Source: Romanomermis culicivorax (taxonomy: Eukaryota; Nematoda; Enoplea; Mermithida; Mermithidae). From it: DNA of 64,000 nt. Shown in pieces: positions 17,028 through 64,000 of this stretch (position 1 is the stretch's first letter; each line of letters opens with the position of its first letter). Below the pieces are notes generated by a model that was not told where the DNA came from, searched no databases, and was given only the letters and a program-made list of their open reading frames with translations. The DNA lies in assembly GCA_963922205.1 (NCBI GenBank), contig CAWUHX010000227.1, positions 186,001 through 250,000 on the forward strand, read 5' to 3'. The translations under genes and the position numbers were made by a program.

Positions 17028-17231
17028 AAATAGTGAGTTGGGAAAATAATATGTGGTGCAAAAAATTTTGAAGGAAATCGTATGAAAAGAGTAGGATTTG
17101 TGACGAAAAAAATGACCAAAGTGGAAGGGGCGGAGTTAAAATCTCTATTTATATGCGAATTTGTGATTCGCAAGTTCTGGCTGTTGGAGCTTTGCTCTCA
17201 AAGCTACAGTATACCGCAAAAAAGTTCATTT
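17015..17231 (-). repeat. Internal repeat A2 (promoter/leader copy)
   Basis: About 217 bp, identical to 20689-20906 except one visible base (GTGAGTTGGG here, GTGAGATGGG there). It overlaps B1 by about six bases, giving the B1-A2 junction typical of split direct repeats. A CTCTATTTATATGCG stretch (plus strand) could hold core promoter signals. Confidence 0.85.
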
Positions 17232-17262
17232 ATTTTCTTTTCCTTGAACCGAAAATAAAATT
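17226..17262 (-). repeat. Internal repeat B1 of the YR retrotransposon
   Basis: The 37-bp partner of the terminal B2 repeat, directly adjacent to A2. Confidence 0.85.
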
Positions 17263-17320
17263 ACTTTTTTGCTGATCATGTACTTTGTTCTGCAAAGTTA
17301 ATCAGTTCAGGCAGGTAAAG

Positions 17321-20184
17321 TTATTGTATTTCTGAGCATGTAAAGTTGATGCGAATAGCTAACAGATTGTTCGAAAATTTTTCTGGATGGAAAATGCTAT
17401 TTGGTAGACTGGCTGATATTAGACAAAACTTGGGGTTCAAGGTCACTTTGTCCTCGATAAAGGGGATCATTTGAGGACTGAACAGAACCGGCCAGAAAGG
17501 AGAACATTTCCATTCTGGAACTATCAAAGTTCCAGCAGACTTTGAAAATTTTAAGTGATTCAGACATTTAATGACTAGGTAAGGAGGAGGAACCAGCCAA
17601 TTGTTTTCATTTGTCCAAGAGACTGTGAAGCAGTCCACTGATTCTGTGTCAGGATTCCAAAAACGTGAGTTGAATCTGCTTATCTTCCTATTCAGGTGAG
17701 ATGCGAAGCGGTCTACAGTGTGAGGACCCCATTGACTATCCAGCATGTGAAAAATATTGTCTGAAATGCTCCAGTCGTCGTAATCTATGATTCTGCTAAG
17801 CTGATCTGCTATTTGATTTTCGTTTCTAGGTATCCAAAAGAGACTGAGTCTAATTCTATGGGACTCGAGTATTCTGAAGACGTTGAAAGCCATATCATTC
17901 AGTGAATCATTCATGCTGCCTTTTCTGATTATATAGAGTAGTGACTGGCAGTCTGTAAACCAAACTATACTCCTGTTATCCAGAAATCTGTGCAGCGCTA
18001 ATAAGCTAAGGTAAATGATTTTCAGTTCTCTGTACGTAGAGGACTGTTGCCTATCAAAAGATGACCACTGCACGTGTGCTACTTCTCCAGAATCAATAAA
18101 ATTTCGTAGGAGTTTTATGTCACCTTTTTTGCATCTGCTCTCTGGCCCTCCGTTTCTGTGTTTTGCCTTCTCTGGGCCAAACGAATGTTCTCTATCACAG
18201 AAGGACGCAGCCTCCATCTTGCCACCCTTGGCATTTTCTGCTGTCCCTGCAGCTGGACTCCGTGCCTTTTCGCAGCACATGCCATCTTTCAAATAACAAT
18301 GCACTTCTTGATGTGCTACAGTATTCCTGCCAACTGCTGCGCTATTCATAGCTATCTCCAGTGCCGAACTTTCGCGCTCAGGCGAAAGATTTTGTTGACA
18401 AATGACGTTTGCCGTCAAATTTATCTGGTCAGAAAAATAAATTGGACCACCAGCGTACAAGTCTGAAACAATATCTGGAAAGTCACCTCCACTTTTTTTG
18501 GTGGATGTTTTGCCAGTAATTTGACGTTCTCTAATGTCTGGGAACAAAAAGTTTTGATTGATGAAGCTTTTGCTGTTGCTAATATGAGAATAACTTTGAG
18601 AAGACTTTTGTCTAGGATGAAAAATATTAGAGGCTCCTGCTAGACTACTGGCGTCTGAAAAAACGAAAACTTCCGGAATTGAAGGTCGATAGATAGGTCT
18701 GGAGGAAATTTTTGGAAGTAAATGATACCAGAAGATACATTCTTTCTTGATCTTTGCAGATATTGTGATGTTTTTCCGCCAAAAGCACTTAGAGAATAAT
18801 CTGTACTTCAAGATTTCGTGAAAAAATGTCTTGGTCTTGAAAAAGGAAACGTTTCTGGTGACAAGAGAAAGTGAAATGATTTTTCCTGCTGAATAGCCAG
18901 GTCTCGAACCTTGCAAACTTTTCTGTTGAGGATCATCTGTAGATATGACCTTATGTTGTCCAATTTTTCTTGTGGTATCATGATTTGTCTGGCATATAAA
19001 TCAATTTGATATCCAAGCCAGGTCAACACTCTGCCTGGGAGCCATGTCGACTTTTCCTCGTTGTACATCAGTCCTGCCTTGGCCAAGTCTGACTGAACTA
19101 ATTTAGCTTGATCCGCAGCTGATTTCTTGCTTTCAGAAGCCACTAGGCCATCGTCCAAGTACAGCACAATTTTCAGTCCTGCTTGCCTCCATTTTTTTAC
19201 CAGTGGTCGTAGCAGTTTTGTGAAAATGAAAGGAGCTGTAGAGAGCCCAAAAGGCAGAACGTTAAAGCAAAAATAGTAAACACGCCCAGAGAAATTCCAA
19301 GAGAAGCCCAAATATTTGCGAAAGTTTTCGTTGAATTCTACGTGGTGATATCCTTTTTTGAGGTCGAAAGAAAAAATGTATGAAGATGATTGTAAATACT
19401 GTTCTGCGACCCTGTAATCTTCGAGCTTAAAGCTGTTCAAGACCAAATATTGGTTCAAGTGTCTAAGGTCAAGAATCAGACGTAATTTTCCTGAGGATTG
19501 CTTGGCTACTGACAGAGGATTGCATAAGTGAGGTCGTTCTTTGAGGGCAGAAATGCAGCCATTCTTAAAGAGCTCGCAAATTGAGAGGGAAACGAAATTT
19601 TTGTTGTGTCTTGCACTGCAATTATTTTCGAAATGAGCCCTCTCTGGGCGACAATTCAAAGGCAGACAGTAACCGTTTTGGATAGTATCCAGTATCAAGT
19701 TTGATGAAGTTAGGGTTCTCCAAAATGTAATATTTTTCGATAAAGTTTTTTCCAGATTGTATTGTTGCAAGGAATTGAAAAAAGCAGACAGATTTTTGCC
19801 CGTTATATTCATGAGAGAACCGATCAGATTTTTTCTGTAATTGATTTCAGATTCGTCATAAGCATGTTCCTCAGGATAGGTTTTCTCACCTTCTACATCC
19901 ATTTTAGGGGTGTGAGCGTGCTGGATTGGTAAAACCGTTGGTGCAGTGATTGGCCCAGTGGTCGAGATCGCCACATTTGAAGCGACCTGGCTTTGATTTG
20001 TTGCTAGTGCCAAAACGGCTAAACGTCGACGTTTTGCCCCCGAAATTGTTGCTGCGCCAGCCAATTGGGGCTCCTTGACTGGCGGAACGAGAGAAACGAT
20101 TGGACGACGTCGTACTTTTCTCTTTTCGTTTTCGTTGTGCTCTCGATTCTGCGCTACGCAGTCTTTTTTCGTCGTCTGAATCAT
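17321..20184 (-). CDS. Reverse transcriptase / RNase H of the YR retrotransposon (frame changed)
   Basis: Two overlapping frames. The first (20184-18808) has the RT palm: LRLILDLRHLN near residue 240, D274 in FSFDLKKGYH, a LPFGLSTAPF motif near 310, and YLDD at 342-345. The second (18916-17321) resumes at AGKIISLSL, which continues the RT thumb, so the frame change falls near 18890 in GACCTGGCTATTCAGCAGG. It could be an inactivating indel or programmed slippage. The RNase H domain has D88 (FVFSDAS), E297 (STYREL), D322 (FTDCQS) and D in NQIADQLS, counted in the second frame. About 180 extra residues (about 97-277, positions 18085-18628) separate the first two acids, far more than in compact RNases H. 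A C-terminal tail of about 130 residues has no recognised domain. Gag overlaps the 5' part in another frame. Confidence 0.85.
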
Positions 20185-20701
20185 CAGCTAAATCGTCTTT
20201 TTCGTACTTGTAAGCTGCTGCCCAGCCGCCTGAGCTTCTGTCGGCAAAGCGAATCAATTTCTGACGTCGTAAAAGCGCCGATATGGCTGATTGCACGTTG
20301 GACAAGGCTTGGGACGCAGTGTTCTCCCTGGACTGGTACAGTAAACCGGACGTCAGGTTTAATGCGTCCAGCATCTTCTCGTTGAATTCGAACTGCCTCT
20401 TGTCCAAGTCCGAATTCCATTTCAGCTCTGTTGCTTTGAGCTTATATGACTGCACACGCTCTGGGGGATCACGTGGTTGAGTGTGCCCCGATTTTTTGAA
20501 AGTTGCCAGGAATTGGTTGAACTGGCGTAAGATTGATGTTGAACGGCTGCGACTATGGCTCCGTTGCGTAGCGCGACTTCGTACTGTATCTTCCGACGGT
20601 GAACGACTTTTCCTCCTTGATCTGCGTTCGTTCGTATCGTTTTGACGTTGTCCGTCCGTTTGATCATTATCAGAAGGCATAGTCGCTGATGCGGAACTCA
20701 A
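19904..20701 (-). CDS. Gag-like protein of the YR retrotransposon
   Basis: 265 codons from a TTG at 20701; the first ATG is residue 8 (20680), in MPSDNDQTDGQRQND. The N-terminal part is rich in Arg/Ser, the middle has a helix-rich segment (LDKRQFEFNEKMLDALNLTS), and the end holds FKCGDLDHWANHC, a CCHC zinc-knuckle layout in which the first Cys is replaced by Arg (codon CGC, one transition from TGC). Gag packages the RNA template. It overlaps the pol frame by about 280 bases. Confidence 0.8.
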   Translation of the reverse strand: MSSASATMPSDNDQTDGQRQNDTNERRSRRKSRSPSEDTVRSRATQRSHSRSRSTSILRQFNQFLATFKKSGHTQPRDPPERVQSYKLKATELKWNSDLDKRQFEFNEKMLDALNLTSGLLYQSRENTASQALSNVQSAISALLRRQKLIRFADRSSGGWAAAYKYEKDDLADDSDDEKRLRSAESRAQRKRKEKSTTSSNRFSRSASQGAPIGWRSNNFGGKTSTFSRFGTSNKSKPGRFKCGDLDHWANHCTNGFTNPARSHP

Positions 20702-20906
20702 AAATAGTGAGATGGGAAAATAATATGTGGTGCAAAAAATTTTGAAGGAAATCGTATGAAAAGAGTAGGATTTGTGACGAAAAAAATGACCAAAGTGGAA
20801 GGGGCGGAGTTAAAATCTCTATTTATATGCGAATTTGTGATTCGCAAGTTCTGGCTGTTGGAGCTTTGCTCTCAAAGCTACAGTATACCGCAAAAAAGTT
20901 CATTTA
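20689..20906 (-). repeat. Terminal repeat A1 of the YR retrotransposon
   Basis: The 5' end of the element on the minus strand and partner of A2. Sequence identity with A2 ends at GTTCATTTA, which marks the boundary with host DNA. Confidence 0.85.
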
Positions 20907-48119: not shown

Positions 48120-48860
48120 CAGTTTGAGAATCATGAGCTACGTGGCTCCTAGGCCTAAGTTTTTTGGAAACAAATTTAAATTGTAGGAGCCAAAAATCTG
48201 TAATTGAAGAATATTGAAGTGTAGGCTTGTAACGTATCGTAATGTAATTAAATTATACATTCAACCAGATGATATGTATTCAAAAAATGATTGTTCAAAA
48301 AGCCTCTTTGTACCTGTACAAGGATCGACCACAAAATCTTTGTACGAAGAAGAATTTTTTGTACAAAAAACCACCATTTTTCGAGCTTCTGTTTCATTCC
48401 TTCTGTTGTTTCCAATATTTCGAGGACGTAGTGTCGAAAAAATTTTCAGATTCTGAAATTATAAAATGCCGGAAAAACAATTTAAGGATAACTCGTTCAG
48501 TAATCATAAGGTTCGATTTTATGTTCAAAAACATATCTTTATCATTTTAAAAATTAAAGAAATATACTCCTACTTCATAAGTTTGAAAGACTTCAAGTTA
48601 AACTTGATGTTTCTGCAAATCACCTCCATGATGCTTATGAATTCAACATCGTCTTCATGTTTAAAAATTTTTCTGCTCGGGTTTTATTAGAAAAAACCAA
48701 ATGTAAGACGCTAACAAAGTCCTAATTTAGCCCCGTCAGGCTGACTAACTATGCAGTATGCACAGATATGGTAGGATCTCCATTGAATGACCAAATAATT
48801 GGCGCGGTTACCTTTTTTGCGACCGAAATCATGTAATTATAATTAACATTTATCGCTATT
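48120..48860. other. Upstream region of the carrier gene, no gene recognised
   Basis: Short ORFs only. A TATTTCAG at 48857-48864 stands 16 bases before the carrier ATG and could be a splice or trans-splice acceptor. Confidence 0.4.
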
Positions 48861-48880
48861 TCAGATTGTCATATTTTATA

Positions 48881-51800
48881 ATGTCGACCGAACGTAAAAA
48901 AACGCACGGCGTCGCAAATATGATAGCCGGCGGCGTCGGCGGATTTTTCGTCGTTCTAACCGGGCACCCTTTCGACACAATCAAAGTTAGGATGCAAACG
49001 GCACGCGTTCCGGCGCCCGGTCAAAGTATTCATTTTAACGGCGCTATCGAATGTTTACGACAAACGGTTACCAAGGAGGTATGTATAAATTCATATAATA
49101 GCTTGTGGTGTCAAGTATATATACGTCGGCATGCGAGACTGGGAGAGATATGAGCTCACCCAGAAGGTGTTTTTTGACTCCGCCCAAATCGTGCCTTCTC
49201 AAGGCGAATCAGATTTTTTCGTTCCAAAACGAAATTTGAACATAATCGATAGATCTTTTTGAGATCTATCCAAAAACGTGACCTAAGAGTGTACCGCCGT
49301 TTTGGCGAGTTGGTTGTTGTTAAAGTTTGATTATGATTTGGTTGAATTCCTTATAGATTTTCCTTATCCTGATTTACGTGGTGCCCACTCGTCTTTTTAT
49401 GGATTTTTTAACCTCAAGAACCATTTTTTGAACCGTTTCCGGACCTTACGGTCGAAAATTTCGAGTTTTTTTTCCTCAATGTTCTCTTTAAATTTTGGCG
49501 ATCCATGACCCCATACATAACATAAACCCCTGACCATCTCCCCGGATCCCCGAGCTGCATTACATGTATAAGTGAAACATTCCTTTTCGATTAATCCCTA
49601 CTCCGTCCAATTGCTCTTTTTCAGGGCTTCACTGGTCTATACAAAGGAATGGGCGCTCCGTTGGCGGGCGTTTCACCCTTATTTGCCCTTTATTTTTTCG
49701 GATGCTCGTTCGCGAAACGGATGCAACAGAAACATCCGGACGAAGTTTTGAGGTATAACTTTTCACAATCTGAATCCAACTCTTTACATTTTTTTGCCCA
49801 TTTTTGGTTAAGAATAGGGTGTTGAGAAACTTACACTTTCCTACAATTGCCAATCGAATCTTTTTTTCACAGCACGTTACAAAATTTCAACGCCGGCGCT
49901 TTTGCGGGTTTTTTGACGACTGTAGTCATAGCACCTGCGGAAAGGATCAAATGCTTATTACAGGTTAAATTGTCTACGACTTTTAAACTTGAGAAAATTA
50001 AATTTCATCTGGTCAGACTCGTTTAACAAAAATGAAAAAATCAGAATAGAAATTATTTTCTCTGTCTTGGAATTAATGTTCAAGAGAGATAGGAATTTTC
50101 CCGTTAAAATATGAAGCGAAATAGAAAAAGATTAGAAAATGATCTCAAATCCGCAGCTTTCGTATGCCAAGCCTAAAATCTATTATATATATAATTGTAA
50201 TATGGCAGGATTTTTTCATGGGGGGGGCGGACCCATTTTTTACTGAATAGCCCCAGAAAATGTTGATTTTACGCGATACACTGTTAGCATGCTGCCCCAA
50301 CGCCCCCCCCCCCTTGTGCACGGTAGGGGTAAAGTTGAAAATTTGCAGGGGTAGTGTAACTGTCTGTGCACTAAACACTTGATTTTGTCTGAAAATTAGG
50401 CACCCAGTGATCAATTTTTAGAACTTTAGGCAGGGATAATACTCCCTCATACCCCTCCCTATGGGGTTGTCTGATTATATATATATCTTACCTGTTACAA
50501 GGAAAAATTAGATTTCGAAAAAGTCACTCGAATTAGAAGATTAGTGATCTAATAGAAGATTAATAATTTTTTCGAAATCTAATTTTACATTTTACAAGTT
50601 TCATAATTTCGATTCCGGGTTTTGCTTACTATTTCGACTTAAAATTCAATTAAAATCTCTATAAACTAGCTATAACTTCCAGATCCAACACGATAAAAGC
50701 GATACTAGATTCCGTGGTCCGATCGATGTCGTCAAAAGATTATACAAGGAAGGCGGAATAAGGAGTATTTATCGCGGAACCGCAGCCACTTTGCTCAGAG
50801 GTTAGGGTTTTAAAGCATTTCGTCCCGAATTTTCATTAACTTTCATGCAATTAGAGGTACCCATAAGAACCCCCTGGAATCTTCGGGCATACGGTGACCC
50901 CAATATTTGGTGATTGTATATCTAAAATAGGTGAGCCATGGGTACCCTATCTTTTTGGTTGGAAAATGAAAAATGAAATTTTGGGTTAGAAAATGATCTT
51001 TTTTGAAAAAAATGGTTTAAAAATTAAAATGTCCATTTCTTGGCGCTTCACCCCATAGACACATATTTATTATAGCTTTTAGACAAAAATACTACCGGTA
51101 TTTTTTTAACCTTTTTCTGATTTTTTACGCGAAAAAGGTCAAATTCTTGTCCTTCAAGGACGTTCCCACCCCTAAAATTTTGAGTCATCGATGACCCTAC
51201 GCATAAAAAGTTGCTTGATTCCACCAGACATGCACGGCAAAAATTTTCCAGGGGGAGGGTCCTCAGACTTTTTATCGAGGGGGTGGGCAAGCAAAAAAAC
51301 TTTCGAAAGTATGTTTTTCATATAAAATACGCATAGAAATCATTAAAAAACTGTCTTGGAAAAAGTTCAGGGGGGTGTTTGGCAATTTTTTCGGGCCAGG
51401 GGGTATCCAGGGTCTCACGTAGGAGGGTTTACCCCCTACCGCCTATGTGCATGTTTGGATTCCACATACCTCGGAGCTCCTTTACATGTGTAGTCACCAA
51501 TAATAATTTTAGACGTCCCCGCCAGCGGAGCTTATTTCGCTTCGTACGAATATTTAATGATCAAATTGACGCCCGAAGGGAAAAGGCAAGTAAAACAGGT
51601 ATTCCTTTTTTGAAACGTGTTCATTCATGATATACAAGGACATTCTTTTCCAATCTGAAGTTAAAAGCTCATATAGAAAAGGTGCCGTTTTTCATCCATA
51701 TGCAACATTTTGAAGTTTCACTATAAATTAGAAAATTTTCTGCAACCACTGTAATGTAAGAAGTTATTGCTATTTGGAAAATCCATTTTTTTTGTTTGTT

Positions 51801-53459
51801 AGCCTGTGTTAAGCTCGAAATCGATACAATTTTCGGCGTTTTTCTCAACTTCACCAAAGATGATTGATTTATGGCTGTTTTTTTGTCTGATCGGCTCGTC
51901 TAATATTTGGAAGCTTATCAAATTTCAGTGCCTTTTTTTACAATTTAACGATTTCTTTTGCAGCCGACATGATCTCAGTATAGGAAAGACTTTGTTCGCG
52001 GGCGGAATGGCCGGCGTCTGTAACTGGCTCATAGCGATACCCCCGGATGTTCTCAAATCAAGATTACAAATTGGTTAGTCCCCTAAGTCTATGATTAATT
52101 TTAGACGAAAATCAATCGCGCGCACCTTTCCTATTGATTAGTTGACTGGTTATGTTGGAGCATGCGAATGTCCTGGGTTCAGGTTCCAGGCCGAGCCTTA
52201 CTCTTACCGATATAGCGGGCAACAGAAAAAGGTTGCATTAACAATGTGATTGCATTATTCTTGAATGAAATTGTTTTAAAAATCTACCAATCGCAAAAAG
52301 CTGCATTTAATTTCAGAAGGGCAACTCGAAAGCGAAAATTTTCTACTTTCTATCAGGTTGAGCATAAAAACTTCGCAGAGAAAAAGAATGCGTGAACCTT
52401 CTTGAACCTCAGGCCACGAAGGAAAATAGAGGGAATAGTGACAAGCATCATAGGAACATTGACATTTTCCAAGTTTACCTGGAAGCTCACTTTTCCATTT
52501 TTTCTGATGTCTTGTCTATGCTCCCATAGCTAGATTTTTAATAGTGTTCATCATCGTTCATATTTTTTCCGTAGACTGTCATTTTGTACATTAATTTTAC
52601 GGCCCTTCACGCCGAGTCTTTTGGCACATAATACATTCAGATTTATTTTTATGATATGAAAGATGCTTTGTATAACATTTATTTCATTGTGCATGAGGAT
52701 TCCGATTTTTTCCCTGATTTTGAAAATCTTTCACGTGAGTAACAGCCAAATGCAGAAGTACGTTTCAGAATGCTCAGCAATTGTAGGCATTTTTGAACAG
52801 AAAACGCGTGTTAAGAAAAATCTTGTACGCATGGAGAAAATGTGGGTCTTACACATTACGTGGAAAAACCAGTCATTCTCAGTGCACAAAAGTGAGTTCC
52901 GTTATAAAGGAAAGAGATCATTTACTGAAACGGTAAAATGCGGCAGCAGGAAATATGCGTCTCGTTTGAACATTTATTGGCAGAAAAAAATTTCTAGAAT
53001 TTGCGAATCACAGAATTCAAAGAAATGTGAAAATATTTTCAAATCAATGTGATAAAACTTTATAATCACGCGTGCTTTACACGTGCTTACCGCCTCTGGT
53101 ACCTACACACTTCTTCCATTTTTGTAATGAATTACTGATGATTTTTGCTCTGAAAAAAAACCTGGAAAAGTCACTGGAAAACTGCCGGACCCCAATTTTA
53201 TCACCAAATTTCCTCTTCAGCCCCACAAGGAAAATATCCGAACGGAATCAGAGACGTTTTCAGAGAGATGATTAGAGAAGAAAGTTTTAGGGCACTTTAT
53301 AGAGGATTCACGCCCGTCATGCTCAGAGCTTTTCCCGCAAATGCAGTAAGTTCTCATTTAGGTTCGATTTTCAAAAGTTTTAATTTACTCCTTTTTTAGG
53401 CGTGTTTCTTAGGCTATGAATTGACGTTTAAAGTTTTGGAGAAGTTTGGTTTATTGTGA
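48881..53459 (+). CDS. Mitochondrial carnitine/acylcarnitine carrier (SLC25A20 / DIF-1 type)
   Basis: Exons 48881-49078, 49625-49752, 49873-49963, 50683-50800, 51513-51598, 51964-52073, 53221-53345 and 53400-53459, about 304 residues, the usual carrier length. Three mitochondrial-carrier signatures are visible: [24 protein letters not shown] and [11 protein letters not shown], each with its downstream GxxGLYKGM-, [10 protein letters not shown]- and SFRALYRGF-type motif. Around them are the carnitine-carrier residues of the family ([16 protein letters not shown] near the end). It exchanges acylcarnitines for carnitine across the inner membrane for fatty-acid oxidation. The start is the ATG at 48881, directly followed by [11 protein letters not shown]. 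The join of the fifth and sixth exons does not hold phase with the obvious sites (51598 and 51964); using an acceptor at about 51930 restores it with ten extra residues. Confidence 0.9.
50195..50325 (-). repeat. MITE with GGCCGTGCACAG ends, reversed copy
   Basis: The reverse complement of the 47930 copy, with shared GGATTTTTTCATG, TTTACTGAATAGCCCCAGAA and GTGCACGG words; it lies in the third intron of the carrier gene. Confidence 0.7.
51230..51445 (+). repeat. Copy of the CATGCACGGCAAGAATTTTCC repeat
   Basis: CATGCACGGCAAAAATTTTC, a G-rich run with GGGTCCTCAGACTTTTTATC, AAAACTGTCTTGG and a terminal ATCCAGGG/TACCCCCTACCGCC section; it lies in the fourth intron of the carrier gene. Confidence 0.7.
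52105..52205 (+). repeat. Possible tRNA-derived SINE fragment
   Basis: TTAGTTGACTGGTTATG followed by GTCCTGGGTTCAGGTTCCAG resembles A- and B-box spacing of a tRNA-like promoter, with an extra base pair in the T-loop word. No full tRNA fold. Confidence 0.25.
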
Positions 53460-53814: not shown

Positions 53815-54062
53815 ATACATGCACGTGGGGGGGGGGGGGGGGTAAACCCCCTTACCTGACACTTTGGCCCAAAAAATCGTCAAACACCCCCCAGAAATTT
53901 TTTTAAGACAGCTTTTTCGATGATTTATGTGCATATTTCGCATGAAAATAAAGCTTTCGGAACTTTTGTTGGTTATTTGCTCACCCATCCCCCTACCCCC
54001 TGAATAAAAGTCAAAGGACCCTTCCCCGGGGAAAATTCTTGCCGTGCATGTCTGGCCCCATA
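53815..54062 (-). repeat. Copy of the CATGCACGGCAAGAATTTTCC repeat, reversed
   Basis: Reads on the minus strand from GACATGCACGGCAAGAATTT to a run of about 18 C next to ACGTGCATG. It lies between the carrier and ARPC4 genes. Confidence 0.75.
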
Positions 54063-54226: not shown

Positions 54227-55861
54227 TTATAGAGACCGCCTGAAAAAAATTACTTTTTTCAAAAATTCCTCTGCTGATATTCTAGCCCGCGCGTTTAAAG
54301 CCAATTTGATTTCCGATATTTCTTTGTCGATTTCTTCCATAAAGTGAATGATGAAATCGACTAATTTATGTTTATACATTTGTTCAGTGTGGGCGTTTGT
54401 GATCAAGAAAGAAATGTCATAGCCCTGAAAGAAAAAACAGATTATTTTTGACCATATAATGGAAATTATTGACTTTCAAAGTGATCTGGCTAACCGAATT
54501 GATGAAGACGAATGAATTTGATACAAGATATAAAAGTATAACATACTTGTACTGGCTTCCTTCTTAGAATTACAAAATTTTCCGATCGCATCATCATGAA
54601 TCTTGTGAATTTGTGGCACAGAATACGTTCGATGTCATCCATCTATAAAATATAGAATGATTAAGGGAAAATTTTCAGAGAAGCATATACATAAAAAAGC
54701 CATATTTTCATCAACCTTGAATCATTGATAAATTTTGACGCCAAACAAACCAAATTTTATATACTGACATTTCATTCCATATGGATAAATTTCAGTGAGT
54801 CTGTCTAGGCTAAATTTAACAGTAGGACTATGCATGCAGTTAACTAACTTGCTTAATAGCGATGCTAATTCGAACGGAATTTATGGATGCTTCGATGAGT
54901 ATTTTTTCTTTTTCATTACGGCTAATCACTATAGGTGTTAGGAGCAATTCTTTGCTTGATCTGAAAGAGACAATTGGATATAAAATTGTAGGGTATTGGA
55001 AAATGGCAGAAGTCCGTGATGGCTAAAAAAAGAGCTTTTTGTATGGTTGCCCATTTCCGGCTCAAAATTGACACGATTTTTGCAGATCTATTTAAATTGA
55101 TAAAAAATGATCATTGCATATTTTCTGGTGTCTAACTGATCAACGACAGGGTTTTTTTGAAAGTTCGAAGATCAGACATCAACTTTTGTAGCAGAAAATT
55201 AAGTCTTGGTTGACGCTGAAGAAATTCAAAAAATTTTTTGCGCCTACGTGCCGAACGGAACAAATTTCAGTTTTTGACATTGATTTCGACATATTCCCAA
55301 ATTTAAGCTAACATTTTCAAGCGAAAATTTGAGTTCATTACACATTCATAAGGCGTTTAATACGGTTTCTTTGGCATTCGCTTTTTTGCGCAAAAATCTT
55401 TTCGTTGATTTAAAGGCTTTTTCACCATATAGTTGTTGCTAATTATTGACTTCATATTACAGGAATTAATTGGCTATTCCTCCCCTATTATTTGGAGCAA
55501 AAAAAAACTTTTCTGTACAAAAAACACCATCTATATGCAGCCGTTTGAGATCATCGGCACACACTTTTGGCTATATAATATGAAATCAAAACCGTCAAAG
55601 CTTGATGAAAATAGTTTGTAACCAAAAATGAAATCTAATTTTCCGAAAATTCAAAGCATATTTGACTTTTACAGTATACAAGAATCGAAATTTAAAACAG
55701 TGAGGTTCTGTTATACGTCGAATAAATTGGATTTACACGTACTTGACTTCAATCTCCGGTTTATTATGACGTTCGACAATTTGCGATGAAAAGTTCTCCA
55801 AGCACAACGCCGCGGTCAACGAATGACGGACGGCGGTCAAGTAAGGCTTCAATGTAGCACT
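54227..55861 (-). CDS. ARPC4: Actin-related protein 2/3 complex subunit 4 (first exon not found)
   Basis: Exons 55861-55743, 54960-54849, 54642-54547 and 54424-54227, all in agreeing phase, with TAA at 54227. The translation runs [79 protein letters not shown], then [20 protein letters not shown], and ends [12 protein letters not shown]. It follows the 168-residue p20-ARC almost residue for residue. ARPC4 forms the core of the Arp2/3 complex, which starts branched actin filaments. Only the initiating Met codon is missing: the first visible codon is the usual second residue, so exon 1 probably ends in ATG. A Ty3-type element is inserted about 0.5 kb upstream on the same strand, and exon 1 may lie beyond it. 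Confidence 0.92.
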
Positions 55862-56087
55862 CTGAAACGAGAATCATATGCGAAGTAAAATGGTCTGGTC
55901 ATCATTCAGTAATAAAGTCTTAATTGCTAATTTTTAATTGCGCCACAAATGTGAATTTTTGAATATATATTTCGACTCCTTCTATGTCCCTTTCTCAGCG
56001 CCAGGAGATGGCGGAAGACCTTTTCTACTTAGCCATGCCATCAATTATGGAAAACGTCTGATTTCTTGCTGATTTTTTTGGTTTTCT

Positions 56088-56310
56088 AGATGGCTGACAC
56101 AAACATACACGGCAAGAATTTTCCAGGGGGGAGGGTCCTTGGCTTTTTATGGAGGGGGCTGGGGCGGGAGCGGGTGAGCAAAAAAAACAAGCATGTTTTT
56201 CGTACAAATATGCAAAAAAATCATGAAAAAAACTGCCTTGAAAAAATTTCATGGGGGTGTCTGGCTATTTATTCGGGTCAGGGGGTGCATACCTGTACTT
56301 GGGGGTGTTA
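56088..56310 (+). repeat. Copy of the CATGCACGGCAAGAATTTTCC repeat
   Basis: CATACACGGCAAGAATTTTC, a GGGTCCTTGGCTTTTTATGG section, GCATGTTTTTCGTACAAATA and TCAGGGGGTGCATACC. It ends directly next to the LTR at 56317. Confidence 0.75.
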
Positions 56311-56316
56311 GGCAGC

Positions 56317-56868
56317 TGTGGGGTCACAATTAAGCAACAATTCTAACCACAGGCTAACAACAACAACAAACACCAAACTCTCCCAGACGTTTCACCAGAT
56401 ATACACCAGAACTTTCACTAAACCTCAGGCAGGACACCTTGGCACGTACCTCAGGAGCTCCTACCCAAGTCTCCACTCCTATTCTTAAAGACTCCCTCCA
56501 CTACGCTCACAAAACAAAACAACTTACAGGTCCAAGTTGTATTGGGTGACGAAGGGCGACGCCAATAATAAATAATATACAAAAATATTATAAATAAGAC
56601 GATGGCGGCGACGCTCCATAAAATAAGTCTTTTTCCATAATGCCAAAAAGACAGAAAACATGCGAAACAGTGGCAGCATAAACCTATGCAAATATATCAT
56701 TCTTTCCGGCCACTTTTCGCCGCGTCCAACCGCCTGCGCACCGACGCCGGAAGCTGAACACGTGCACCTGAGCCCACCTCAACATCCCTCGGCCCTCAAA
56801 ACCGACCAACGGGAGGTGAAAACCTTTCTGCAGCCTGAGTCTCATACTGAGGCCCCGACTGCATAACA
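56317..56868 (-). repeat. 3' LTR of the Ty3-type element (552 bp)
   Basis: On the minus strand it begins TGTTATGCAGTCGGGG after the purine-rich GAGGGGAAAAC and ends GTGACCCCACA, giving TG...CA ends with ACA/TGT symmetry. A TTATTTATAATATTTTTG stretch near its middle could be the core promoter. The second LTR is outside the window, so the limits rest on end motifs only. Confidence 0.55.
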
Positions 56869-57529: not shown

Positions 57530-60500
57530 TTATTGTTGCCCGCCGCCACCATAACCGCCGTATTGGAAGCTACCACGGCGAGGGTAGGGACCACCCTGAG
57601 CTCCACGACCCCTGAGGAATCCCCCAAAAACTCCTCGAGGTTGGGCCACACGAGGGGGTCCGCCCATCACCTGTCCTCTATACGGTTGCGGATTAACCAT
57701 CTTAAAGGGTCTACCTTGACCCTGTCCCTGACCCCAGCCCCGGCCATATTCCCCTCCAGTTCCCCTCTGGTACGAGCCCTGAGTGGAACTTACGGAAGAT
57801 ACTCCTGAAGCTGAGGTAGTGGACCTACCTTGACTTTGTTGATTCGCATATGGTAATTTGAATACTCCAGGCTGGTGCCGACCCTGCGAGTGAGACGATT
57901 GTCGCGAGTGCTGGCTCCTAGTCCTGGATGCATCCCTAGGTTGTCTCTCCGTTAACATTGGAATCTTGAAGGGTTGCCCCTCCTCATCCTCGGCCTTCTG
58001 GAACTTACCAGAAAACTTCTGAACCATATCAGACAACCTTCTTTTCGCTGCCATATCTGCTGCAGTTTGTTGGTGCTCCTGCATTCGGTTGGCGTACGCT
58101 TCCCTGAATGCAGTACTACCTTCTCCCCGCAGGTAGATAGAATAATATCTTTCCGTAACAAATGACTTGGCCCGTGCATCAATTGCACCAATATGTCTCG
58201 GGCCCAATTGCTGTTGTTCTAACTTTAGCAACACCATGGTACATAAGAATCTCACGGCTGCCATCACTATTTCCGCATCAAAATGATGAAACCAATTTGG
58301 CATGAACTTGAGCCAAATATATTCCCAAATGGGCTCAGGAACGTTTACATGATCATACAGGAAACCACCTTGAACATCAAAGTGATCCCCGTAATTCTCG
58401 TAAAGCTCCTCTACTCCATTATTCACTAATGCCCAGATGATTTGGTTCCTATTATCATCTGGCATATCCTGAGCAAAAAATTCGATCACCTCCAGTGTCG
58501 AAAAATCTATCCTTCCCTTCACCAAGGGAAACTTCTTATGGACGTCCCAGTAGTCTCTCAAAACAGAACTTAGGTACTCCAAAGTTACTTCCTTATCTCT
58601 ACTTCTCTTGACCGATTTTGTCGGTTCCGACGTAGAGGGTTTAGAAACAACTTTTTTCCCTGAAGCGCTGCTCTGGTCCTGCTGAGAAGTCTTATCCACC
58701 TTAGACACGGGCTTAGCCAAAGTACTTTTCGTCGTTGCACTTACCTGAGATGCAGACGATTTACTAGGTACTTTAGCCGAAGCAACCGTCGACTGCACCT
58801 GACTCGTAGAACTTTTGGTTCCAGGCATCAGGCTCGTCGGCGTAGTTCCCGTCTTGGATTTGGTTGAATCCGTCAATAAAGTTGTAGATCTTGCAAACTT
58901 CAAATCCACAGACGTAGAACTCCCTGTCTGTTCTCCTTCACCATCACTGATTTCAATAACATCTTCTTCTTCTCTCTTCTTAGCCCTATTGGCCTTTCGG
59001 GTTAATTTTCGTCTTCCTAATCTTTTAATTTGGTCGTCCGTACGACCTTCTGCTCTGAACTTTCTAACCTCTTCGGCAGTATACATACCTGGTATACCAC
59101 TGTCCATACTTGGATCTCTGGGCGCTACTTGAACTGTCGGCGTAACCTTGCTGACCGCAGGCTGGATGACCTGCGTACTAGCGGGTTGCGCCGGCAATTT
59201 CGGGATATGATAAGCAGTAGGCGGCTTGGCTGGAGCTTGCACGACTGTAGGCGCTGCCAGAGGCGTCGGCTGCGCCGTAAAACCAGCCAATACTAGTTCC
59301 AGCTGCTTCTGCTGCTGATCTAATCTCGCTTTCTGCTCCGCAAGCTGCTTAGTAAAAATCTCTTTCTGTCTCTCGATTTCCTTTTCAGCTTGCTCCCTGA
59401 GCCTTGCTTCAATTTCCTCTATTGCTGGACTTGCAGCAATCGTTATCAGATTGCTTTCATCCAACATCTGCTCTGCCCTGACATCCATTCCAGAAAGTAA
59501 ACTTTCTGTCTGATCTAATAATGAAGTTACCTGTGTTTCTTGATCAGGCTGTATCAACGATTCAACAGTGACCTCATTGTCCACTTCTAAATCGTCTCCT
59601 ACCTGATTCAAGTCTATGGGGGTGTTGAGGTCTGCAGGTATCACCTGTTGCTGTGCTTTCGCCGCAACAGGCTCAGCCTGCATCCCCTGCACCTGACCCA
59701 AACTACTCATATCAACTCCAGGTTGTTGACTCACCGTTGTGCTTACCTCAGTGCCTGTAACCGGCACTGCTGGCTGCTTACCTGTCGGCGTCACTACAAC
59801 CTTATCGCCAATATGCGTAATCGTAAAACCTGGAGCATCGGACGGCAATATGGGCTCAAAAAATGGCGGCTCGTAACCTGGAATGTATTCCGGTTGATAC
59901 TCTAAGACGCTCTTTTTCTGATTCTCCTTCGTTGCGTCCTCACTCATATCTATTGGGTATCGCAAACCTGGAACTCTAACAGCTATCTGGCGGAAGTAAA
60001 ACCTCTGATAGCAGTACGGATTATCTTTGTACTGCGGACACTCCGCCAAATGCTTCCTTTTATCTTCCGGTCTTTGCTCCCATGACTTTGTCTTGGGCCA
60101 AAATCGGATCGGCAGAAATCCGAAACGATTTCCCCAACATGTAATAGAATCGCCCTTGGTTGGCGTATGTACCTCTGTTACTGGAAGACTATTCAAAAAT
60201 GATAAGTACTGACCGTACCTATCTCCCCTCCACAACATCTTCAAGAGTTGTTCCTTTCCCTCAGGGCTAAAGGATCTCAAATAGTTGTGGTCAAGGAGAG
60301 AGGTAAGGTACTCCTCCGCTTCCTCTCTGCAAGCTGGCCAAAACAAATGAAACGTGAGCGGAACTTTATTACACACTGACTCCAAATTCTTAAAATTGTC
60401 CTCGATCAATATTTCAGAATAAGGAGAGATATCCATACTCCAGTGTTGTCTTACATACGAGTCTTTACCGTTCGAAACTCTGACCGGTTCATACTCGTGG

Positions 60501-61762
60501 TAATCAACTTCCAGAGATGGTATCTCCAATAACTGCTTCGTTTCTTTCCTATACCTTAGGTAATTCTCGTACAAAACCATAGATACTGGTTCATCGAGTC
60601 TACTGAAACTCTTCCCTCGATTAACCATATCTATCACCTTGTTCATTATTCGAGTTCTAATCTGCTTTTCCGACAAAGCTTCTTCGAACTCTTCATCCTC
60701 ACTTACCGTATCATTACCGTCTACATTCTTACTTTTTTCTTTAACGGTATAATCAGGATGAATACCTTTAGGTATACTTACGTCTCTCCCTCTCTTCGGA
60801 TTTGCCTCGTAATGAGGGAAGCTGTACTCCACATAGCCTCCAAATGAGGTGTCCATTTGGGCAGCCATACGGGCATACGCTTCCTGTCTCATTACGTGGT
60901 AAATAGCCGACGACTGCGGCTCCTCTACTTCCGGACTTCCACAAAAAGTCTGCCGAAAATTCTCTCCATGTATCATATTAAAAAACCTGTACGACATTAT
61001 CTGGATTTGATCCGCTTTCATCAAATCATGCGGAAAATACTGGAATCCGACCTCGACTTCCATAGCTAACTCATAGTGGAAAAACGCTAAGAAAACCAAC
61101 AATGAGTAGTAGGCATCCAGTGCTGAATACCTGATTTCAAACTGTGTCAACATATGCCTACAGAATCGTTCACGTTGCGCTCTCTGACGGAAATCGATTT
61201 GGAAATAACCAACGTCCGCCAGATACAGCTCCGTGAACAACCCTTTCAGCTTAAATGTTTCTGGGCAAAGTCCCAACTTCCTGGACATTGCCAAAAATCT
61301 TCCGTTCAATTGATCCCCTACCTTGGCTACTTCATAATAACGGCCATACGAAGATGCAATTCTATACTTGATCTCTGCTGTCAGATCAACATCCTGGTGA
61401 TTTCTGCCTGCGCCATTAACATTCCAGACGGCAACCAGATCTGTAACCAAGTTGTATCCAACGAGAAGCATGTCCGAATCTAAGAGCTCATGAATGAGCG
61501 TCCATTCCTTCGGCATGATTGTCGTAGTATCTACAACAAAGGTGTCTCCAGTCACCGTCGAGAAGCTAATGACTCTCGTGAACTCCTTCCCTTTTGGGTT
61601 ATCAACCCCAGAAGTCGCGAAAACCTTACTGATATACTCTTGAGTAACTTTTTCGGTATCAAAACCGATAACTGGCTGTCCTCGAAACCTACTGTCCTTT
61701 AAGGTTTCGATCATCTCAGCCACCTTACCTACCTCGACCAATTTCGGTTCCGTCAGTTCCAA
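57530..61762 (-). CDS. Retroelement ORF with N-terminal DEDDy 3'-5' exonuclease domain
   Basis: About 1410 codons without interruption. Residues 28-225 fit the RNase D / WRN-type exonuclease fold: motif I D35 and E37 (VIGFDTE), motif II D108 (VGYNLVTDL) and motif III Y212 and D216 (IRYSALDAYYSLL), i.e. all five acids/tyrosine of the DEDDy class, plus the typical VISFSTV strand and LYLADVGYFQIDFR stretch. Such enzymes degrade DNA or RNA from 3' ends with two metal ions. Then follow an acidic/Pro-rich middle, a coiled coil near 770-815 (ARLREQAEKEIERQKEIFTK), a Ser/Thr/Lys linker, a helical region (about 1080-1240) and a Gly/Arg/Gln-rich RGG-like tail. The codon at 61762 is TTG; the frame stays open upstream to about 61860, where an AATTTTTTAG acceptor lies, and the first in-frame ATG is residue 17 (61714). 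It stands where env would be. An alternative is an unusual Gag. Confidence 0.8.
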   Translation of the reverse strand: MELTEPKLVEVGKVAEMIETLKDSRFRGQPVIGFDTEKVTQEYISKVFATSGVDNPKGKEFTRVISFSTVTGDTFVVDTTTIMPKEWTLIHELLDSDMLLVGYNLVTDLVAVWNVNGAGRNHQDVDLTAEIKYRIASSYGRYYEVAKVGDQLNGRFLAMSRKLGLCPETFKLKGLFTELYLADVGYFQIDFRQRAQRERFCRHMLTQFEIRYSALDAYYSLLVFLAFFHYELAMEVEVGFQYFPHDLMKADQIQIMSYRFFNMIHGENFRQTFCGSPEVEEPQSSAIYHVMRQEAYARMAAQMDTSFGGYVEYSFPHYEANPKRGRDVSIPKGIHPDYTVKEKSKNVDGNDTVSEDEEFEEALSEKQIRTRIMNKVIDMVNRGKSFSRLDEPVSMVLYENYLRYRKETKQLLEIPSLEVDYHEYEPVRVSNGKDSYVRQHWSMDISPYSEILIEDNFKNLESVCNKVPLTFHLFWPACREEAEEYLTSLLDHNYLRSFSPEGKEQLLKMLWRGDRYGQYLSFLNSLPVTEVHTPTKGDSITCWGNRFGFLPIRFWPKTKSWEQRPEDKRKHLAECPQYKDNPYCYQRFYFRQIAVRVPGLRYPIDMSEDATKENQKKSVLEYQPEYIPGYEPPFFEPILPSDAPGFTITHIGDKVVVTPTGKQPAVPVTGTEVSTTVSQQPGVDMSSLGQVQGMQAEPVAAKAQQQVIPADLNTPIDLNQVGDDLEVDNEVTVESLIQPDQETQVTSLLDQTESLLSGMDVRAEQMLDESNLITIAASPAIEEIEARLREQAEKEIERQKEIFTKQLAEQKARLDQQQKQLELVLAGFTAQPTPLAAPTVVQAPAKPPTAYHIPKLPAQPASTQVIQPAVSKVTPTVQVAPRDPSMDSGIPGMYTAEEVRKFRAEGRTDDQIKRLGRRKLTRKANRAKKREEEDVIEISDGEGEQTGSSTSVDLKFARSTTLLTDSTKSKTGTTPTSLMPGTKSSTSQVQSTVASAKVPSKSSASQVSATTKSTLAKPVSKVDKTSQQDQSSASGKKVVSKPSTSEPTKSVKRSRDKEVTLEYLSSVLRDYWDVHKKFPLVKGRIDFSTLEVIEFFAQDMPDDNRNQIIWALVNNGVEELYENYGDHFDVQGGFLYDHVNVPEPIWEYIWLKFMPNWFHHFDAEIVMAAVRFLCTMVLLKLEQQQLGPRHIGAIDARAKSFVTERYYSIYLRGEGSTAFREAYANRMQEHQQTAADMAAKRRLSDMVQKFSGKFQKAEDEEGQPFKIPMLTERQPRDASRTRSQHSRQSSHSQGRHQPGVFKLPYANQQSQGRSTTSASGVSSVSSTQGSYQRGTGGEYGRGWGQGQGQGRPFKMVNPQPYRGQVMGGPPRVAQPRGVFGGFLRGRGAQGGPYPRRGSFQYGGYGGGGQQ

Positions 61763-63191
61763 CGGAAATCTCCCGAACGTCGTGGCAAACCATCGTTCTA
61801 ATTCGCCGACTCTGACAATGCATTTAACATTGTAGTCTAAAAAATTCAGGCGAAATGTTTACAACTTTTTAATGAAAATTTTTCCCAAAGCGGACAAACA
61901 TCGGTTAAATTCTACCTTCACCACAGATAGTAAGCACAAATAGGAAAGAAGAAAAGAAAATTGCAAGCAGGGGAAAATAAGGTACCAAACATATATTGGG
62001 TTAGTGTTGGCAGATAGTTAAACACAAGTGCGGCCCCGACTTCTACCTTATACGGGAGTACACGCACAGACCACCTGCGTCTTCCATCAATCGACTGCTA
62101 GCCGTCTCAATCCAACGCCCAAAACGGCCTATCCAATCAATAAATTAAGAATTTCCAAGAAGAAATTTGAAAATATATTTACTATTTTACCCAAAATGTG
62201 GAAATTCGTAGAAAATTAAGTAAAGATGGAATTTAGAAATTTAAATAAATTTTGAAATTATCTAACCCTAGTCGACTAGTTGCTACACTCCACTTCTTCC
62301 CCATCACATAGACGAATTTATTCAACTCGCTATGTGTGTAGAGGAATAATGTAGTTTCGCAAAAAGTCCAAATTTTGCGCTACGGGCAGCTTTGCCACAC
62401 TTTTTCAAGTTGACAGAACAATTATGTTCCCACTAAACTTTTACAATTGTCTAGGCCTTCGTCTAGACACCTGTGGGCTATAACATCCTGCTTTGCCCAA
62501 TAAATTTTTAAATTAAGTAAGTTTAAAACTTAGGTCGCTTACCATCGACTAAAAAATACCGATTGTTTTGCCGCACCTGCGGCTGTCCCTAGGTCACGTG
62601 GGGGTCCGTGACCAAATACTGCTTCGTCCGGCGTCCATTGGGGGGCCTGGACATTCCTTCCGCTTCTTTTTCGAATTCTACTAATTCCGCGCTATCAATT
62701 TTTGCAAAATTTTTTAAATTTGTTTAATATGAGCTGAAAAATCGACAAATTTTCCGCTTTCGCTACTTTTTGTCTATTTTCACTCTAAAACTCAGCGGTT
62801 TTCCCAATTCTTCCAATATTCACAGAATTGGGGGGCAACAACTAACTATTTCCTCCGAAATTAATCGGACTCGGGGAAATATAAAATTTAGGCCGCGAAA
62901 AAAGATTTAAAAATTTAGGTTTTTGCGAAGAGTGGTTTTTCACCAAAAATTTTGAGAAATTTTAAGATTTACGCGAGGGAAAATTAAAAATACACGATAA
63001 ATACGCGATAAATACATAAATAATTACAATTAAATACAATTTGTACTTAAATACAGAATTGGGGACGAAAAAATATGGGGGGGTATTCATACGCACACAC
63101 ACACGCGAAAAACGGCGCTACGCGCTACGGCAGTTTATAATTACTTATTTTCGAATCTACAGTAAACTGCGTGTCCTTAGATGACACGTCG
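61763..63191 (-). other. Noncoding gap between integrase and the exonuclease ORF
   Basis: No long ORF. It contains a T/A-rich part, several GC-rich phrases (62580-62660), a short ACACACACACGCG run near 63100 and, at its 3' end on the minus strand, AATTTTTTAG, a plausible splice acceptor leading into the next ORF. Confidence 0.5.
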
Positions 63192-64000
63192 TTAGACTGC
63201 AGCCATCTGCCAGTCTCGTAGCGAAAGTGCTTTAACCTGCTCACGGATACCACCTGCTTTTTCAGCGGCTCTCCAGTGAGCGATTTCAAGCACATTCTCT
63301 GATAATCTCCTATTATCAGTAACAACATACGATCCTTGCCACGGAAGACCCAGTTTTTTCTGTTTATCGACTTTCAGCAAAACCCAATCATTGACGGAAT
63401 AATCATGAGCCTTTGCTTTACGGTCAAAAAACTTTTTACTGCTCTCCGCAGCCTTCCTGATATTCTCAGCAATGGTCTCATAAGTTTCTACTAAGCTTTC
63501 GGTTAGTATATGCTTATAAGCCTCATAGTTCATTGGTAGAACTATGTTTCTAGCAACACCAATACTAATGCCAAAATTTGCCTCATGACCTCTCAATAAG
63601 GCAAATGGAGAACATCTCGTTGAGGTATGAGGTGTGGCATTATATGCAAAAACGACAGATTGCAAATATCTGTCCCACTTATCTGAATCCTCTATAGCAA
63701 CCTTTCGCAACTGCTTGATCAAGGTTTGGTTAAACCTTTCAACCATTCCATTTCCTTGTGGATGGTAGGCAGTTGTGAAAATCTTCTGACACTCCAACAA
63801 TTTACAGACTGAGGTCATCAAATCAGCTGTAAAGCATGAACCGTTATCACTCAACAATTTCACCGGGGTTCCATGCCTGAACACAATATTTCGAAGAAAA
63901 CTGTCCACAATGGTTACAGCAGATTGATCCGGGATCATTTCTGCTTCCACCCATTTTGTAAAGTAATCTTGAAATACTATCACATACGGTCTTTTCTCGC
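63192..64000 (-). CDS. Ty3-type integrase, C-terminal part of pol (open at the window edge)
   Basis: The frame is open to the right edge (upstream residues read RPY before VIVFQDYFTKWVEA). Counting from the codon at 63983, the catalytic triad is D6 (VFQDYF), D46 (LLSDNG) and E82 (NGMVERFNQTL), with the 35-residue D-E spacing of retroviral-type integrases. Downstream, RCSPFALLRGHEA and a KLGLPWQGSYVV element match the C-terminal domain of Ty3 integrases. It inserts the cDNA into the genome. The end after LSLRDWQMAAV shows no chromodomain. Confidence 0.9.
   Translation of the reverse strand, partial: EKRPYVIVFQDYFTKWVEAEMIPDQSAVTIVDSFLRNIVFRHGTPVKLLSDNGSCFTADLMTSVCKLLECQKIFTTAYHPQGNGMVERFNQTLIKQLRKVAIEDSDKWDRYLQSVVFAYNATPHTSTRCSPFALLRGHEANFGISIGVARNIVLPMNYEAYKHILTESLVETYETIAENIRKAAESSKKFFDRKAKAHDYSVNDWVLLKVDKQKKLGLPWQGSYVVTDNRRLSENVLEIAHWRAAEKAGGIREQVKALSLRDWQMAAV

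What the first reader, a model, noticed from the sequence alone, without database searches (positions are those of the whole stretch)
57530..61862. A DEDDy exonuclease fused to a long coiled-coil/RGG protein, carried by a Ty3-type retrotransposon
Seen: one uninterrupted frame of about 1410 codons on the same strand as a Ty3-type integrase and before the 3' LTR, with D35, E37, D108, Y212 and D216 in the order and context of RNase D/WRN exonucleases. Known: Ty3 elements carry gag and pol and sometimes env; I know of none with a cellular-type 3'-5' exonuclease in the env position. Inference: the protein could trim cDNA or RNA ends, counter host small-RNA silencing (the nematode silencing factor MUT-7 is of this class), or be an unusual Gag. 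The intact catalytic residues argue for selection.
Basis: partly seen in the sequence, partly recalled or inferred. Interest (0 to 1): 0.92.

Follow-up and report, generated by a model that had tools for sequence, protein, structure and literature searches.

The report
Nematode retrotransposon carrying an exonuclease-like gene
A 14-kb jumping element repeated many times in a mosquito-parasitic nematode carries, behind its usual genes, a large extra gene that begins with a domain resembling RNA- or DNA-trimming enzymes and is kept intact by selection; the only similar add-on genes we found described are in rotifers.

Summary
The frame is real and lies inside the retroelement. The genome matches Romanomermis culicivorax (359.1 Mb, 595 contigs). 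The element is 14,012 bp: 479-bp LTRs (2 differences), gag-like ORF1, PR-RT-RH-IN pol, ORF3, LTR. Nine of 12 copies with both LTRs found have matching 4-bp flanks; ORF3 had IN's end beside it in 31 of 33 copies and an LTR in 31 of 33. pN/pS is 0.10 in frame, about 2 in the other frames, and 0.12 in seven copies picked by non-coding sequence. D35, E37, D108 and Y212 are in 40 of 40 copies, D216 in 38. The exonuclease assignment rests on PF01612 (E 9.6e-5, just under the cut-off) and motifs; structure prediction failed. No ATG opens the frame; a splice from pol is inferred. 'None known' is wrong: Rodriguez et al. 2017 described DEDDy ORF3s in bdelloid rotifer LTR elements. New here: nematode host, a roughly 1,445-codon protein, measured purifying selection, inferred splicing, and another family with a DEDDy ORF behind an integrase-like frame (one locus seen). 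Most likely an auxiliary nuclease acting on RNA 3' ends in the element's RNA-protein particle (inferred).

The parts
56306..56784 (-). 3' LTR, 479 bp, TGTTGA...CTAACA
   Evidence: matches 5' LTR C227:255839-256317 with 2 differences in 479; replaces a by-eye 563-bp guess
56785..56797 (-). purine-rich tract GAGGGCCGAGGGA before the 3' LTR, presumed polypurine tract
   Evidence: read by eye from sequence; position set by LTR start
57533..61858 (-). ORF3 open frame (1442 codons here, 1445 in most other copies); stop codon 57530-57532
61028..61804 (-). DEDDy 3'-5' exonuclease-like domain (residues about -14 to 245 in the TTG numbering)
   Evidence: PF01612 E 9.6e-5, 22.7 bits, cut-off 23.6 (on residues -14 to 260); motifs; 40 copies
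59285..59416 (-). charged, P/G-free stretch, coiled-coil-like (residues 783-826)
   Evidence: composition only; no coiled-coil program was run
57998..58591 (-). lowest pN/pS of the five regions of the protein, residues 1058-1255, no known family
   Evidence: pN/pS 0.043; no Pfam match there; 50 candidates, none at E <= 0.001
57533..57997 (-). Gly/Arg-rich (RGG-like) C-terminal tail, residues 1256-1410
   Evidence: 12 RG/GR dipeptides, shuffles mean 7.0, 139 of 5000 reach 12
61836..61837 (-). inferred 3' splice site: first exon base 61836, after TTTTTTAG
   Evidence: 25 columns around it identical in 33 of 33 copies; same junction as R. culicivorax model P0018
61859..63191 (-). spacer between IN stop and ORF3 frame, treated as non-coding
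   Evidence: no codon periodicity of variation in its last 360 bases; 40 scored copies
63192..63998 (-). C-terminal part of integrase; rest of pol, ORF1 and 5' LTR lie beyond the window in L009

Best explanation
A young, multi-copy Ty3/gypsy-type LTR retrotransposon of the nematode Romanomermis culicivorax has a third gene in the env position. Shown: the gene is part of the element, is kept in frame by purifying selection, and begins with a domain that has the DEDDy exonuclease motifs. Inferred: it is made from a spliced mRNA whose last intron removes IN; the protein joins the element's RNA-protein particle through its RGG tail and helical parts; and its 3'-5' exonuclease-like domain trims or degrades 3' ends of RNA (element RNA first, possibly cDNA or host small RNAs) in favour of the element's replication. 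It is an auxiliary nuclease, not an envelope, not the Gag and not a host gene.
For: Element: LTR pair with 2 of 479 differences, ORF1, PR-RT-RH-IN, ORF3. Same order in other copies: IN end in 31 of 33, LTR in 31 of 33; 4-bp flank matches in 9 of 12 copies with both LTRs found (the script tested 5 bp, the 4-bp matches were read by eye). Selection: pN/pS 0.108 over 33 copies; without the window copy 0.104 in frame against 2.18 and 1.97 in the other frames, 325 variable third positions against 97 first and 96 second; 0.122 in 7 copies chosen by the spacer. Motif residues: D35, E37, D108, Y212 in 40 of 40, D216 in 38 of 40. Family: PF01612 E 9.6e-5; the 24%-identical relative L061 (BLASTP 1e-10) matches PF01612 on its own, E 2.3e-4. 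Splicing: the 32 codons before the TTG have pN/pS 0.020, no ATG, an invariant acceptor-like block, and R. culicivorax gene model P0018 runs from pol-like sequence into ORF3 as ...SQNYN..., the junction that donor L009:638 and acceptor 61836 would give.
Against: The PF01612 score stays just under the curated cut-off (22.7 of 23.6; 16.3 for the whole protein). No significant PDB sequence match for this domain (one search gave one unrelated chain at E 1.1). A profile of the other DEDDy family in the genome scores it at 4.1 bits, third among 2001 sequences of which 2000 are shuffles; hhalign E 0.018, probability 2.5%. Structure predictions unusable. The inferred donor scores 5.5 bits on a recalled matrix, and 19 other sites score over 6. 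No activity, expression or particle evidence. 93 of 150 scored ORF3-start places have frames shorter than 1418 codons, with recurring truncated lengths, so many copies lack a full ORF3.
Confidence: 0.5

Rival explanations
1. Silencing suppressor: the nuclease degrades Dicer/RdRP-made siRNAs aimed at the element, from their 3' ends.
For: Clade I nematodes are reported without PIWI and EGO-1-type RdRP, and no 5'-triphosphate small RNAs were detected in R. culicivorax; transposon siRNAs of the clade I nematode T. spiralis are Dicer products and HENN-1 is not conserved there (PMC4323106 passages), so 3' ends may be open to such an enzyme. The element is young and numerous.
Against: No small-RNA data here; nothing links ORF3 to siRNAs; many truncated copies persist, though these could be helped in trans.
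Confidence: 0.2
2. RNA-export or expression regulator like CERV of C. elegans Cer1, with the exonuclease-like domain used mainly to bind RNA.
For: Same position after pol and same kind of spliced expression with upstream exons; nuclear RNA-export role shown for CERV (PMC10309623 passages). RGG tail and basic stretch RRKLTRK at 917.
Against: No sequence comparison with CERV was made; motif residues kept in nearly all copies suggest catalysis.
Confidence: 0.15
3. Structural protein: an env-like or second Gag-like protein with a relic nuclease domain.
For: Env position; large size; RGG tail like ORF1's; one hydrophobic 19-residue stretch, mean 1.80, at residue 1163.
Against: Motif residues kept; own gag-like ORF1 present; the hydrophobic stretch lies inside the 1058-1255 region; no fusion-protein family matched.
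Confidence: 0.08
4. The DEDDy likeness is accidental and the N-terminal domain is another fold.
For: Sub-threshold Pfam score, no fold support, weak link to the genome's clear DEDDy family.
Against: Only one of 24736 Pfam models matched the domain at E <= 1, at 9.6e-5; same class found in NCBIfam at 0.0021 and in Pfam for L061; all five motif residues in order and conserved.
Confidence: 0.06
5. Host gene or separate element that merely abuts IN.
For: A 1.3-kb spacer lies between IN and ORF3.
Against: Dispersed copies with the same order and matching 4-bp flanks.
Confidence: 0.01

Closest known systems
DEDDy-type ORF3 of bdelloid rotifer LTR retrotransposons (Juno, Vesta) and of Athena/Terminon Penelope-like elements, Rodriguez et al. 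2017 (PMC5408684; abstract, 12 passages and section 13 seen)
   Same: RNase D-like DEDDy ORF downstream of pol in an LTR retrotransposon; several lineages of one genome carry such ORFs
   Different: Nematode, not rotifer; ORF3 of about 1445 codons with further regions and an RGG tail, whereas the paper says the rotifer DEDDy ORFs lack CC and TM domains; selection on the DEDDy ORF measured here (section 13 tests env and GDSL ORFs); spliced start inferred; direct sequence kinship not testable here
CERV of Cer1, C. elegans Ty3/gypsy element (PMC10309623, passages seen)
   [quoted passage not shown] nematode host
   Different: CERV is 517 aa with H, M and G domains; the word exonuclease does not occur in the main text
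Cellular DEDDy exonucleases: RNase D, Rrp6, WRN, MUT-7 (PF01612)
   Same: Motif order and residues; weak profile match
   Different: Element-borne, highly diverged, joined to a long protein without known family
Second DEDDy-bearing family of the same genome (L057-L060, L062)
   Same: Clear PF01612 match in the two members scanned; in L057 the DEDDy ORF lies behind an integrase-like frame on the same strand
   Different: Frame of 609 codons at L057's place, insert after motif I, only weak likeness to ORF3

Membership tests
Ty3/gypsy LTR retrotransposon | PR-RT-RNase H-IN order in pol | tested here: met
   for L009, rest of IN in the window
Ty3/gypsy LTR retrotransposon | Paired LTRs TG..CA with short target duplication | tested here: met
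   both LTRs found for 12 of 16 copies looked at (for the other 4 the fetched 2.5 kb held no 5' LTR); 4-bp match in 9 of the 12, one of them only a run of C
DEDDy 3'-5' exonuclease (PF01612) | Three Exo motifs D-x-E, D, Y-x3-D in order | tested here: met
   motif pattern recalled
DEDDy 3'-5' exonuclease (PF01612) | Profile score over the curated cut-off (a convention of the library) | tested here: not met
   22.7 bits against 23.6, although E 9.6e-5; hence 'exonuclease-like'
DEDDy 3'-5' exonuclease (PF01612) | RNase H-like fold | tested here: inconclusive
   models too poor
DEDDy 3'-5' exonuclease (PF01612) | Metal-dependent 3'-5' exonuclease activity | not testable with these tools
   needs protein
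Rotifer-type DEDDy ORF3 element | DEDDy ORF downstream of pol inside the LTRs | tested here: met
Rotifer-type DEDDy ORF3 element | Same lineage: sequence kinship to Juno/Vesta DEDDy ORFs and rotifer pol | not testable with these tools
   no rotifer element sequences at hand; database search with profile A1 returned 18 proteins at E <= 0.001, all R. culicivorax
Envelope gene | Fusion-protein family, signal and TM anchor | tested here: inconclusive
   no Pfam fusion family; one hydrophobic stretch inside the protein; no signal-peptide program was run
Gag | Is the element's capsid gene, upstream of pol | tested here: not met
   ORF1 upstream of pol is the gag-like frame, with a CCHC-like motif and RGG tail by eye; ORF1 itself has no Pfam match at E <= 0.01

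The most novel reading that the evidence does not exclude
Mermithid nematodes harbour a pool of element-borne DEDDy nucleases spread over separate LTR-element lineages, kept by selection, which disarm Dicer/RdRP siRNA silencing by eating unprotected siRNA 3' ends in animals that lost piRNAs.
Probability: 0.15. Interest if true: 0.87.

Novelty: new variant of a known kind. Interest (0 to 1): 0.6.

Why it matters
It takes a gene type found, in the searches made here, only in papers on rotifer retroelements into nematodes, and gives what section 13 of the rotifer paper did not: strong codon-level selection on a DEDDy ORF. A numerous, recently active family in one host makes the open question (what does a retroelement gain from a 3'-5' exonuclease?) testable with small-RNA and particle data, in a nematode clade reported to lack piRNAs.

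Tried and rejected
The first LTR guess (563 bp) was wrong; the pair gave 479 bp. The fold of the LTR guess was unremarkable (z -0.91). Protein database searches with residues 1-700 (7994 candidates scored) and 1052-1255 (50 candidates) found nothing at E <= 0.001. Phage records gave no match; viral contigs gave no relative of ORF3 and, for IN, one tblastn match but no locus. Structure prediction was run twice without usable result. Foldseek on the poor second model had no match at E <= 0.001; its top rows include Pol1, RICE1 and At5g06450, which I recall as having DEDD-type domains, but I do not use this. PDB profile searches: A1 hit MUT-7 homolog, Rrp6 and RNase D among 8 sequences and A4 hit WRN and MUT-7 among 4, probably because of the second family, since ORF3's own profile A3 hit nothing at E <= 1. 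Rfam and tRNA scans of the window were empty. Host gene, Gag and mere abutment were considered and rejected (see rivals). Searches of the genome with L061 and with short patterns for the splice sites did not complete.
Full report
Observation. The minus-strand frame 57533-61858 (1442 codons; the 1410-aa ORF of the finding starts at a TTG inside it) is uninterrupted. Pfam PF01612 (DNA_pol_A_exo1) is the best match: E 0.009 for the whole protein, E 9.6e-5 and 22.7 bits (cut-off 23.6) for the domain alone; three other copies gave 1.8e-4 to 3e-4. NCBIfam's best match for the domain is of the same class, a 3'-5' exonuclease/polymerase, E 0.0021.

Host. The genome tool places the window at C227:186001-250000 of a genome of 359,112,060 bases in 595 contigs. 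Table 1 of PMC10879605 gives 359.1 Mb and 595 scaffolds for R. culicivorax v2 (passages). All 18 database proteins found at E <= 0.001 with the genome's DEDDy sequences are R. culicivorax, and 50 matches to the nematode cuticle-collagen family Col_cuticle_N fit a nematode (that the family is nematode-typical is recalled).

Element. L009 (C227:249700-259600) continues it: 5' LTR 6140-6618, a 775-codon frame (first ATG at 6031, by eye) with a C-x3-H-x4-H-x4-C motif and RGG tail (by eye) but no Pfam match, and pol with protease, RT (4.8e-40), RNase H, H2C2 and IN. The LTRs are C227:242306-242784 and 255839-256317, so the element spans 14,012 bp. They differ at 2 of 479 positions. Of 16 copies looked at for both LTRs, 12 had them; for the other four the fixed 2.5-kb stretch fetched held no 5' LTR. 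Nine of the 12 have matching 4-bp flanks, the window copy's being only a run of C; these nine differ at 1-4 LTR positions. The three without matching flanks (L002, L015, L017) differ at 7, 14 and 15. By blastn, IN's end was found near ORF3 in 31 of 33 copies (not L007, L033) and an LTR in 31 of 33 (not L021, L025); these counts include the window copy itself. ORF3 therefore travels with the element.

Copy number. An ORF3 search scored 33 of 4598 first-look candidates, all 33 matching; 30 of 33 have no internal stop. The spacer gave 40 scored matches of 389 candidates. A 101-aa R. culicivorax protein gave 150 scored matches of 2650 candidates; 57 of 150 lie in frames of at least 1418 codons, 53 of exactly 1445, while lengths 230, 164 and 630 recur 12, 8 and 6 times. 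By the tool's own statement such counts are lower bounds.

Selection. Pooled pN/pS over the 33 copies is 0.108; by region 0.103 (1-240), 0.090 (241-610), 0.209 (611-1057), 0.043 (1058-1255), 0.105 (1256-1410). Leaving out the window copy, the true frame gives 0.104 and the other frames 2.18 and 1.97. Because the 33 were the best protein matches, I took the first 7 spacer-ranked copies not among them: all 7 fetched exonuclease regions are open, pN/pS 0.122, against 0.089 for the 33 over the same codons, so some bias is there but it is small. Among the 33, variants shared by two or more copies are 9 replacement to 41 silent, singletons 35 to 29, against about 3.6 to 1 expected from site numbers alone: older variation has been filtered, new variation less so. 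D35, E37, D108 and Y212 are kept in 40 of 40 copies, D216 in 38 of 40 (one G, L015; one E, L052). Full-length ORF3 constraint was measured only on the 33; the 7 were fetched for the domain alone.

Start of the protein. The 32 codons before the TTG have pN/pS 0.020; in them 12 of 15 variable columns are third positions, and the 300 columns or so upstream show no such periodicity. No ATG opens the frame (first at residue 17), so the start is elsewhere. A block of 25 columns, identical in 33 of 33 copies, holds TTTTTTAG|AC, which fits a splice acceptor at 61836. R. culicivorax model P0018 reads pol-like sequence and then ...SQNYN... into ORF3; in this element a donor at L009:638 (CTCAAA|GTAACT) and this acceptor would give SQNYN too, removing a 2,500-nt intron with IN. 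Whether the model rests on reads or prediction is unknown to me, and the donor's score is modest (5.5 bits on a recalled matrix; 19 other sites exceed 6).

Other DEDDy ORFs. PF01612 gave 80 matches over the cut-off among 119 scored candidates in the genome, many in open frames of about 300-614 codons; ORF3's own domain, which scores below the cut-off, is not among the places listed. Of six fetched, five form one family (L057-L060, L062; PF01612 E 7.8e-12 and 2.8e-14 for the two scanned) and one, L061, is a broken distant relative of ORF3's domain (24% identity, BLASTP 1e-10; PF01612 E 2.3e-4). In L057 the ORF lies about 240 bases behind a frame with an integrase zinc domain (H2C2, E 2e-6; no rve match) on the same strand. 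Only this one context was looked at. Direct kinship between ORF3 and that family is weak: hhalign E 0.018, probability 2.5%; HMM score 4.1 bits, third in 2001 sequences of which 2000 are shuffles.

What failed. Structure prediction (pLDDT 34 with one sequence; 40 with 19) and the fold search say nothing for or against. ORF3's own profile has no PDB match.

Mechanism. Motif residues under selection, an RGG tail and env-position, probably spliced expression fit an auxiliary RNA-end nuclease best; the substrate is a guess. Rodriguez et al. raised 3'-end processing and a mut-7-like silencing role for the rotifer ORFs (passages). In R. culicivorax no 5'-triphosphate small RNAs were detected and PRG-1/Piwi is stated absent; clade I is listed without PIWI and EGO-1-type RdRP; in the clade I nematode T. 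spiralis Dicer-made siRNAs go with DNA methylation (PMC4323106 passages). This makes a siRNA-directed role possible but not the C. elegans mutator role.

Prior art. Full-text searches of open-licence PMC papers led to DEDDy ORFs in LTR elements in Rodriguez et al. 2017 and, among the papers I opened, in three that cite it (passages of PMC6338049, PMC6431247, PMC5718144). Other listed papers were not opened. Section 13 of Rodriguez et al. tests selection on env and GDSL ORFs, not DEDDy. None of the opened passages describes such an ORF in a nematode; papers outside that library were not searched.

Noticed in passing
window 15978-20809 (-): Frames that look like a DIRS/PAT-type tyrosine-recombinase retroelement (RT-like, recombinase-like; one leader peptide read twice), judged by eye. 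A paper on tyrosine-recombinase elements in Nematoda mentions Romanomermis (PMC4157794, search listing only).
   Followed up: no
window 54230-54475 and about 55790-55870 (-): Exons resembling ARPC4 (recalled, no search); the element lies upstream of them in the same orientation, perhaps in the first intron.
   Followed up: no
window 48791-53396 (+): Exons resembling a mitochondrial carnitine/acylcarnitine carrier (recalled, no search).
   Followed up: no
window 51225-51283, 53990-54054, 56100-56164: Related repeat arms, 80-82% alike in direct and inverted order, outside the element.
   Followed up: no
window 63128-63373 against 63192-63998 (-): The Ty3-like IN tail (VSVSRLKHF) is in a different frame from the rest of IN in this copy; the tail is open in 30 other copies, but their upstream frame was not in the loci. 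So this copy's IN may be broken near its end.
   Followed up: partly
G000:C305:17728-28085 and C14:1926937-1937461: LTR pairs about 10.4-10.5 kb apart instead of about 14.06 kb: perhaps internally deleted copies. In C14 the ORF3 start (1935435) lies only about 1.5 kb before the 3' LTR, with a 94-codon frame, so most of ORF3 seems missing there.
   Followed up: no
G000 ORF3 places: Truncated frame lengths 230, 164 and 630 recur (12, 8 and 6 of 150), as if copies with an inherited stop kept spreading, perhaps helped in trans.
   Followed up: no
G000:C158:182213, 187991, 193769: Three PF01612 matches of equal score spaced exactly 5,778 bases: a tandem array.
   Followed up: no
L035 and L047 (5' flanks of copies L002 and L015): The two copies share the same 12-base 5' flank but have no matching 3' flank and higher LTR divergence (7 and 14 positions).
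   Followed up: no
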